Below are positions 46,477 to 46,563 of a DNA stretch of 64,000 nt, one piece after another. The position numbers and the translations under genes were made by a program. The stretch comes from Bdellovibrio sp. NC01. GTDB taxonomy: Bacteria > Bdellovibrionota > Bdellovibrionia > Bdellovibrionales > Bdellovibrionaceae. A model generated the notes under the pieces. That model had not been told where the DNA came from, ran no database searches, and saw nothing but the letters and a program-made list of their open reading frames with translations. Location: positions 2,108,001-2,172,000 of the forward strand of contig NZ_CP030034.1 of the NCBI RefSeq assembly GCF_006874625.1, read 5' to 3'. Every line of letters begins with the position of its first letter. Position 1 is the first letter of the stretch.

Positions 46477-46530
46477 CTCGTCGGGCTCATAACCCGAAGG
46501 TCGTAGGTTCAAATCCTGCCTCCGCAACCA
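46477..46530 (+). tRNA. 3' fragment of an initiator tRNA-fMet gene (attachment-site scar)
   Basis: 54 nt covering the anticodon arm, variable loop, T arm, 3' acceptor strand and encoded CCA. The anticodon stem-loop TCGGGCTCATAACCCGA shows anticodon CAT with the three G:C pairs of initiators. The T arm is GTAGG-TTCAAAT-CCTGC. The sequence to the left can supply a CGCGG-like acceptor strand but no D arm, so the gene is not functional as it stands. It is the expected end of an element integrated in the tRNA; the 5' half should lie beyond the left edge. Confidence 0.8.
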
Positions 46531-46563
46531 ATAAAGGCCTGATGGTAAACCATCGGGCCTTTT
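46531..46563. terminator. Terminator following the tRNA fragment
   Basis: AAAGGCCTGATGG-TAAA-CCATCGGGCCTTTT forms a strong stem. It probably belonged to the intact tRNA gene and also faces the convergent gene at 46576-47121. Confidence 0.85.

What the first reader, a model, noticed from the sequence alone, without database searches (positions are those of the whole stretch)
46477..46563. Truncated initiator tRNA gene marks the right end of a genomic island
Seen: 54 nt of tRNA-fMet 3' sequence with CAT anticodon, T arm, CCA end and terminator, lacking a D arm. Coding style changes across this point, from small accessory proteins to housekeeping genes. Known: integrases use tRNA 3' halves as att sites. 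Inference: everything from the left edge to 46530 may be one element of more than 46 kb. Use of an initiator tRNA gene is uncommon.
Basis: partly seen in the sequence, partly recalled or inferred. Interest (0 to 1): 0.7.

Follow-up and report, generated by a model that had tools for sequence, protein, structure and literature searches.

The report
Conjugative element in sole start-tRNA gene
The tRNA fragment is the displaced right-hand end of a 66-kilobase mobile element that has inserted itself into the only initiator tRNA gene of a Bdellovibrio (predatory bacterium) genome and supplies the lost half of that gene, and related elements do the same elsewhere in the phylum.

Summary
Window 46477-46530 is a 54-nt 3' fragment of tRNA-fMet with its native terminator. 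The intact tRNA-fMet lies 65,859 bp to the left, outside the window, followed at once by a tyrosine integrase and an HTH_17 (excisionase-like) gene. Rejoining the flanks rebuilds a complete tRNA-fMet, and 15 of 23 other genus genomes have tRNA-fMet running directly into the sequence found here after the fragment. The element encodes T4SS proteins, a coupling protein and MOBC-type relaxases, so it is most likely an integrative and conjugative element (ICE). It occupies the only initiator tRNA gene among 33 tRNA genes. Two sibling elements sit at the same tRNA in the genus. New here: an 11-bp-phased repeat pair (putative integrase arm sites) marks both ends and occurs nowhere else in the genome; the same architecture with different letters recurs at 30 of 31 related integrase loci. 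A hairpin with a near-invariant apex and changing stems lies beside the relaxase gene, a candidate oriT. The kind is known (tRNA-borne ICE). Initiator tRNA use is not rare in this integrase family.

The parts
46477..46530 (+). attR: displaced 3' fragment of tRNA-fMet (gene positions 24-77)
46486..46492 (+). CTCATAA, the 7-nt anticodon loop: putative strand-exchange (overlap) region
   Evidence: identity between attL and attR begins 0-2 nt before this loop in 6 of 7 elements with both ends; overlap role inferred
46533..46562 (+). native tRNA-fMet terminator, now orphaned
   Evidence: homologous sequence follows intact tRNA-fMet in 15 of 23 other genus genomes, 16 with a 2-nt shift
46349..46366 (+). 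right putative integrase arm site GGTCCAC-N4-GGTCCAC
   Evidence: one of exactly two matches of GGTCMACNNNNGGTCMAC in the 3.98 Mb genome; the other starts 93 bp after the intact tRNA
46020..46215 (-). candidate oriT: nested inverted repeats, hairpin 46087-46133 with apex CCTACGA on the relaxase strand
   Evidence: (z -12.4); function inferred
45212..45985 (-). MOBC-type (Replic_Relax/MobC) putative relaxase
44362..45108 (-). second Replic_Relax/MobC-like protein
43038..44345 (-). TraD/VirD4-type coupling protein
35629..36214 (-). HTH_3 protein + weak ParE/HigB-like protein, probable toxin-antitoxin pair, shared with the G023 element
30342..34241 (-). RHS-repeat protein (1299 aa)
24656..25585 (+). 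DpnII/MboI-type nuclease-domain protein, weak
20024..21632 (-). NADAR protein and PRTase-CE protein, adjacent
5574..10526 (-). two RCC1-repeat proteins
3..1463 (-). window part of a 1245-aa RHS/YD-shell protein running off the left edge
1..46530 (.). window part of the 65.9-kb element; the left 19.4 kb lies outside (C1:2088618-2108000) with intact tRNA-fMet, integrase, HTH_17 gene and T4SS genes
57313..59256 (+). flank, not element: methionyl-tRNA synthetase gene, which lies 0.2-6.6 kb downstream of tRNA-fMet in relatives

Best explanation
The fragment is attR of a 65.9-kb ICE. Its tyrosine integrase recombines attP with the anticodon region of the single tRNA-fMet gene. The element carries its own copy of the tRNA from the anticodon loop to CCA, so integration rebuilds a complete initiator tRNA at the left end and pushes the host's original 3' part plus terminator to the right end. 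A pair of 11-bp-phased repeats on each side binds the integrase (inferred). An HTH_17 protein is the likely excisionase (inferred). After excision the element would transfer by conjugation, using a MOBC-type relaxase, a putative oriT hairpin, a TraD-type coupling protein and a T4SS (inferred from gene content). Shown: both ends, intact tRNA and integrase, uninterrupted sites in relatives, siblings at the same tRNA, shared transfer genes. Not shown: excision, transfer, or activity of any protein.
For: Intact tRNA-fMet at C1:2088595-2088671, same orientation. Integrase PF00589 6e-26 and HTH_17 4.5e-9 beside it. Rejoined flanks give a complete 77-nt tRNA-fMet. The post-fragment sequence follows tRNA-fMet directly in 15 of 23 other genus genomes at 32 or more of 38 identities. 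The Met-tRNA synthetase gene lies just downstream of tRNA-fMet in 7 of 20 relatives whose flanks were read. Sibling integrases (59% and 50%) lie at tRNA-fMet in G023 and G012, each of which has a second partial tRNA copy. The three elements share integrase, HTH_17 gene, VirB10-like and other T4SS genes, coupling protein and MobC proteins; VirB4 is matched in all three genomes. Arm-site motif: 2 hits in the genome, both at the element's ends, 0 in the reversed control.
Against: No excision or transfer was tested. Several T4SS assignments are weak (TrbI 0.002, VirB9 6e-4) and no VirB11 or pilin gene was identified. Relaxase matches are below the curated cut-offs. The gene on the left of the tRNA is not next to tRNA-fMet in the relatives read, so only the right flank shows synteny. 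Identity between attL and attR in this element begins 9 nt before the anticodon loop, earlier than in its relatives, which is unexplained.
Confidence: 0.87

Rival explanations
1. A genomic island or mobilisable element that integrated by the same route but can no longer transfer itself, because the transfer genes are incomplete.
For: No VirB11 or pilin gene was recognised and several T4SS matches are weak. Small elements with the same ends exist (G212 about 6 kb, G360 about 9 kb between arm sites).
Against: Integrase, HTH_17, VirB4, coupling protein and MobC genes are open and shared with two diverged siblings, as expected under selection for transfer.
Confidence: 0.2
2. Integrated prophage or phage satellite.
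For: A tyrosine integrase at a tRNA gene is common to prophages.
Against: No capsid, portal or tail gene was found among the 66 element proteins scanned with Pfam (one is a fragment of another). One weak GpA terminase-ATPase match (0.0012, below cut-off) on a 103-aa zinc-ribbon protein is not convincing. Conjugation genes are present.
Confidence: 0.02
3. Old tRNA-fMet pseudogene unrelated to a mobile element.
For: The fragment carries two differences from the intact gene; the T at gene position 68 is in none of the 24 intact genus copies, so it looks like decay.
Against: Both ends, the integrase, the paired arm sites and the uninterrupted sites in relatives are all present.
Confidence: 0.01

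Closest known systems
tRNA-borne genomic islands of the Islander type (PMC4383910; parts 1 and 2 of 3 read)
   Same: Regenerated tRNA at one end, displaced 3' fragment at the other, tyrosine integrase inside, anticodon-centred crossover (their class A, 2083 of 3919 islands).
   Different: The target is a single-copy initiator tRNA gene in a predatory genus; paired phased arm sites are described at both ends.
Mobile elements with MOBC (PF13814) relaxase and VirD4 coupling protein (PMC5357655, passages read)
   Same: PF13814 relaxase together with a VirD4/TraD-type coupling protein.
   Different: Those were streptococcal mobilisable elements with serine integrases; here a tyrosine integrase and T4SS genes are on board.
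Tn916/lambda-type integration modules (recalled, no call)
   Same: Repeated arm sites flanking a core on both sides; integrase plus small excisionase.
   Different: Repeat words differ between relatives while the 11-bp phase is kept; homology of the arm-binding domain was not tested.

Membership tests
Genomic island in a tRNA gene (Islander definition) | Intact tRNA gene and its 3' fragment in the same orientation bounding the island | tested here: met
Genomic island in a tRNA gene (Islander definition) | Tyrosine integrase encoded inside | tested here: met
   PF00589 6e-26
Genomic island in a tRNA gene (Islander definition) | Uninterrupted site in relatives (added here as support, not part of their algorithm) | tested here: met
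   15 of 23 other genus genomes
Integrative and conjugative element | Relaxase gene | tested here: inconclusive
   Replic_Relax 3e-5 and NCBIfam MobC 1e-14, both below curated cut-offs; conserved in siblings
Integrative and conjugative element | Coupling protein | tested here: met
   TraG-D_C 5e-8, above cut-off
Integrative and conjugative element | T4SS mating-pair apparatus with VirB4 | tested here: inconclusive
   P-loop_TraG 2e-14, above cut-off; VirB9 and VirB10 matches weak
Integrative and conjugative element | Excision, transfer and re-integration | not testable with these tools
   needs PCR and mating
MOBC relaxase family | PF13814 domain (assigned to MobC by CONJscan in PMC5357655) | tested here: inconclusive
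   24.6 bits against a cut-off of 25.3
Prophage | Virion structural and packaging genes | tested here: not met
   none recognised above cut-off

The most novel reading that the evidence does not exclude
A phylum-wide family of mobile elements has specialised on CAT-anticodon tRNAs, above all the initiator tRNA. Each lineage carries its own pair of 11-bp-phased arm words at both ends, which act as a private recognition code between integrase and att site and may allow several such elements to live in one genome. In Bdellovibrio the cell's only initiator tRNA then depends on the resident element for its 3' half and, in most relatives, its terminator.
Probability: 0.35. Interest if true: 0.62.

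Novelty: new member of a known kind. Interest (0 to 1): 0.5.

Why it matters
Nine library searches listed no paper that, from its title or abstract or the passages read, maps an ICE family of Bdellovibrio to tRNA-fMet; subscription journals are largely absent, so this is weak evidence of absence. If the element is live, it is a natural route for genes into an obligate predator and a possible genetic tool: an integrase, an attP and a single-copy attB present in all 24 genus genomes examined. Because the target is the sole initiator tRNA gene, every integration and excision must keep translation initiation working, which makes element-host dependence directly testable. The conserved 11-bp phase with changing letters makes arm-site and integrase co-evolution testable too.

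Tried and rejected
Prophage: no virion genes found. Two elements in tandem: the arm motif occurs only twice in the genome and only one integrase of this subfamily is present. A second initiator gene: 3 of 33 tRNA genes read CAT and only one has initiator features (the features are judged from recall). Left-flank synteny: the GH15 gene beside the tRNA lies elsewhere in relatives. A terminator regex failed (0 of 24, a badly written pattern); the identity column of the same call was used instead. One search joined attB with one base counted twice; one search repeats it correctly. The window-wide frequency of CCTACGA is at chance level; only its place at the hairpin apex is informative. Papers found for tRNA-fMet (PMC12429752, PMC11476347, PMC9602619, PMC12302457; passages read) concern phage-borne tRNA genes, gene duplication or toxins, not insertion into initiator tRNA. 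Williams 2002 (recalled) is not held.

Rows dropped before counts: duplicates L104, L106, L110, L112, loci with E above 1e-18 and proteins under 250 aa, the 31 'main' loci exclude 7 loci at Ser, Leu, Ala or Asn tRNAs, of which 5 also have a lag-11 repeat of 7 or more. L192 counts as fMet although the 5' half of its tRNA is abnormal. In the terminator count, the hairpins of L200 and L215 overlap the arm repeats and may not be terminators.

Full report
OBSERVATION. The window lies at C1:2108001-2172000 of a single-contig genome of 3,975,853 bp. Window 46477-46530 reproduces positions 24-77 of the genome's tRNA-fMet with two differences, followed by a 13-pair terminator at 46533-46562. No complete tRNA lies in the window. 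The genus is Bdellovibrio. One genome of the same genus code, G012, has a contig of 184,055 bp like record DFXZ01000002.1, Bdellovibrio sp. UBA4095. Another, G004, has the 3,769,537-bp chromosome size given for B. bacteriovorus SSB218315 in PMC5941755 (passages read).

THE OTHER END. The intact tRNA-fMet is at C1:2088595-2088671, so the two copies stand 65,859 bp apart in the same orientation. Directly downstream of it, on the opposite strand, lie a 394-aa tyrosine integrase (PF00589, 6e-26) and an 84-aa HTH_17 protein (4.5e-9). Joining the left flank to the right flank gives a complete 77-nt tRNA-fMet that differs from the present gene by T at gene positions 48 and 68. T48 occurs in 7 of 24 intact genus copies and T68 in none, so T68 is probably decay after displacement (inference).

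EMPTY SITES. All 24 genus genomes have one full-length tRNA-fMet match at 96-100%. In 15 of the 23 others the 38 bases after the gene match the sequence after our fragment at 32 or more positions; G005 has it shifted by 2 nt; 7 do not have it, among them the two sibling-bearing genomes. In 7 of 20 relatives whose flanks were read, the gene at window 57313-59256, a methionyl-tRNA synthetase (PF09334), lies 0.2-6.6 kb downstream of tRNA-fMet at 86-90% identity. Here it is 10.8 kb beyond attR. The left neighbour is not syntenic.

SOLE INITIATOR. Rfam finds 33 tRNA genes. Three read CAT and one of these is the initiator type. The 3' part of the cell's only initiator tRNA gene is therefore element-derived.

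ELEMENT CONTENT. Left part: TrbI/VirB10-like (0.002; DotG model 1.5e-6), VirB9-like (6e-4), VirB4 (P-loop_TraG 2e-14; TIGR00929 2e-23). Right part: coupling protein (TraG-D_C 5e-8; SXT TraD 1e-20) and two Replic_Relax/MobC proteins (best 1e-14). PMC5357655 equates PF13814 with MobC relaxases. Cargo: RHS proteins, two RCC1-repeat proteins, PRTase-CE with NADAR, an SRAP protein, a DpnII-like nuclease and a probable toxin-antitoxin pair.

SIBLINGS. Of 24 genus genomes, G023 (59%) and G012 (50%) carry sibling integrases at tRNA-fMet. Each has a second partial tRNA copy; in G023 it lies 65 kb away on the same strand, in G012 on another contig. Shared genes are listed; internal order is rearranged in G023. 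VirB4 matches at E below 1e-50 occur in G000, G012, G023 and, partial, G017; G011 and G013 have only weaker ones. MobC relatives also occur in G002 and G004, and weakly in G011.

CROSSOVER. In 7 elements whose attL and attR could be compared, identity starts 0-2 nt before the anticodon loop CTCATAA in 6; in ours it starts 9 nt before it. In G012, G210 and G063 the two ends are on different contigs, so their pairing is assumed. In ours the first difference to the right is gene position 48. The exchange therefore most likely lies in the anticodon stem-loop (inference), matching the anticodon-centred class of Islander. A Gly-tRNA element, G189, behaves alike.

ARM SITES. GGTCMACNNNNGGTCMAC occurs exactly twice in the genome, starting 93 bp after the intact tRNA and ending 110 bp before the fragment, with 0 in the reversed control. 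At the right end the nearest pair starts 137-139 bp before the anticodon loop in 7 of 7 elements; at the left end 93-139 bp after its first base. Eight genomes searched with this motif (G012 and G023 included) have 1 to 5 sites each and 0 in the control; G169 has one only. G063 uses another word, TGTGCAAC, at two places. Among 31 loci of related integrases, 30 have an exact repeat of 7 nt or more at lag 11 in the 130 bp after the tRNA; no other lag from 5 to 30 exceeds 2; shuffles average 0.25. The loci are related, so these are not 31 independent events, but the words differ widely. That these are integrase arm sites is inferred.

TERMINATORS. 18 of 31 loci carry a hairpin-plus-T signal in the 110 bp after the tRNA (shuffle mean 1.6), so most of these elements seem to replace the terminator they displace; ours does not.

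FAMILY TARGETS. 61 of 368 phylum genomes have an integrase match at 1e-30. Of 59 integrases in the tree, 38 have an adjacent tRNA: 19 fMet, 5 other CAT tRNAs, 5 Gly, 4 Ser and 5 others; 21 have none in reach. On the tree fMet needs 9 changes against 16.2 when shuffled, so the target is heritable but has switched.

CANDIDATE oriT. Window 46020-46215, between the MobC gene and attR, folds as single-stranded DNA at -65.1 kcal/mol, z -12.4. On the relaxase strand its hairpin apex fits CRCTCYCTACGAGAK. The same apex with different but still paired stems precedes MobC genes in G023, G012 C1 and G012 C9; a variant with a longer loop precedes those of G004 and G002; two weaker homologs (second copy in G002, G011) lack it: 4 plus 2 of 8 examined. 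Nicking is untested.

VERDICT. An integrated element at tRNA-fMet is established by comparison; that it is a live ICE is likely but untested. The kind is known; the target, the host and the end architecture give moderate interest.

Noticed in passing
window 46020-46215: Strong nested inverted repeat beside the MobC gene; hairpin apex conserved while stems change in sibling elements (candidate oriT).
   Followed up: partly
window 46381-46410 and L004:4800-4830: CGAA words at about 10-bp steps next to the arm sites on both ends; possible excisionase sites.
   Followed up: no
window 20024-23220: PRTase-CE protein next to a NADAR protein and a PDC-M36A-like protein, perhaps an uncharacterised defence set.
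   Followed up: no
L263 1106-4739: The small G360 element carries a UvrD helicase next to an OLD-type ATPase/TOPRIM protein, like the Gabija pair (name recalled).
   Followed up: no
L194: A related integrase lies 199 bp from a predicted selenocysteine tRNA gene, an unusual target.
   Followed up: no
L254 / L192 (G360): The tRNA at the left end of the G360 element has an abnormal 5' half, perhaps a decayed or stacked site.
   Followed up: no
L261 (G063:C29:17089): The attR tRNA fragment breaks off about 26 nt after the start of the anticodon loop.
   Followed up: no
window 29103-29838: Three tandem small ORFs of 73-76 aa beside the RHS gene, one with a 79% identical relative in G023; possible immunity genes.
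   Followed up: no
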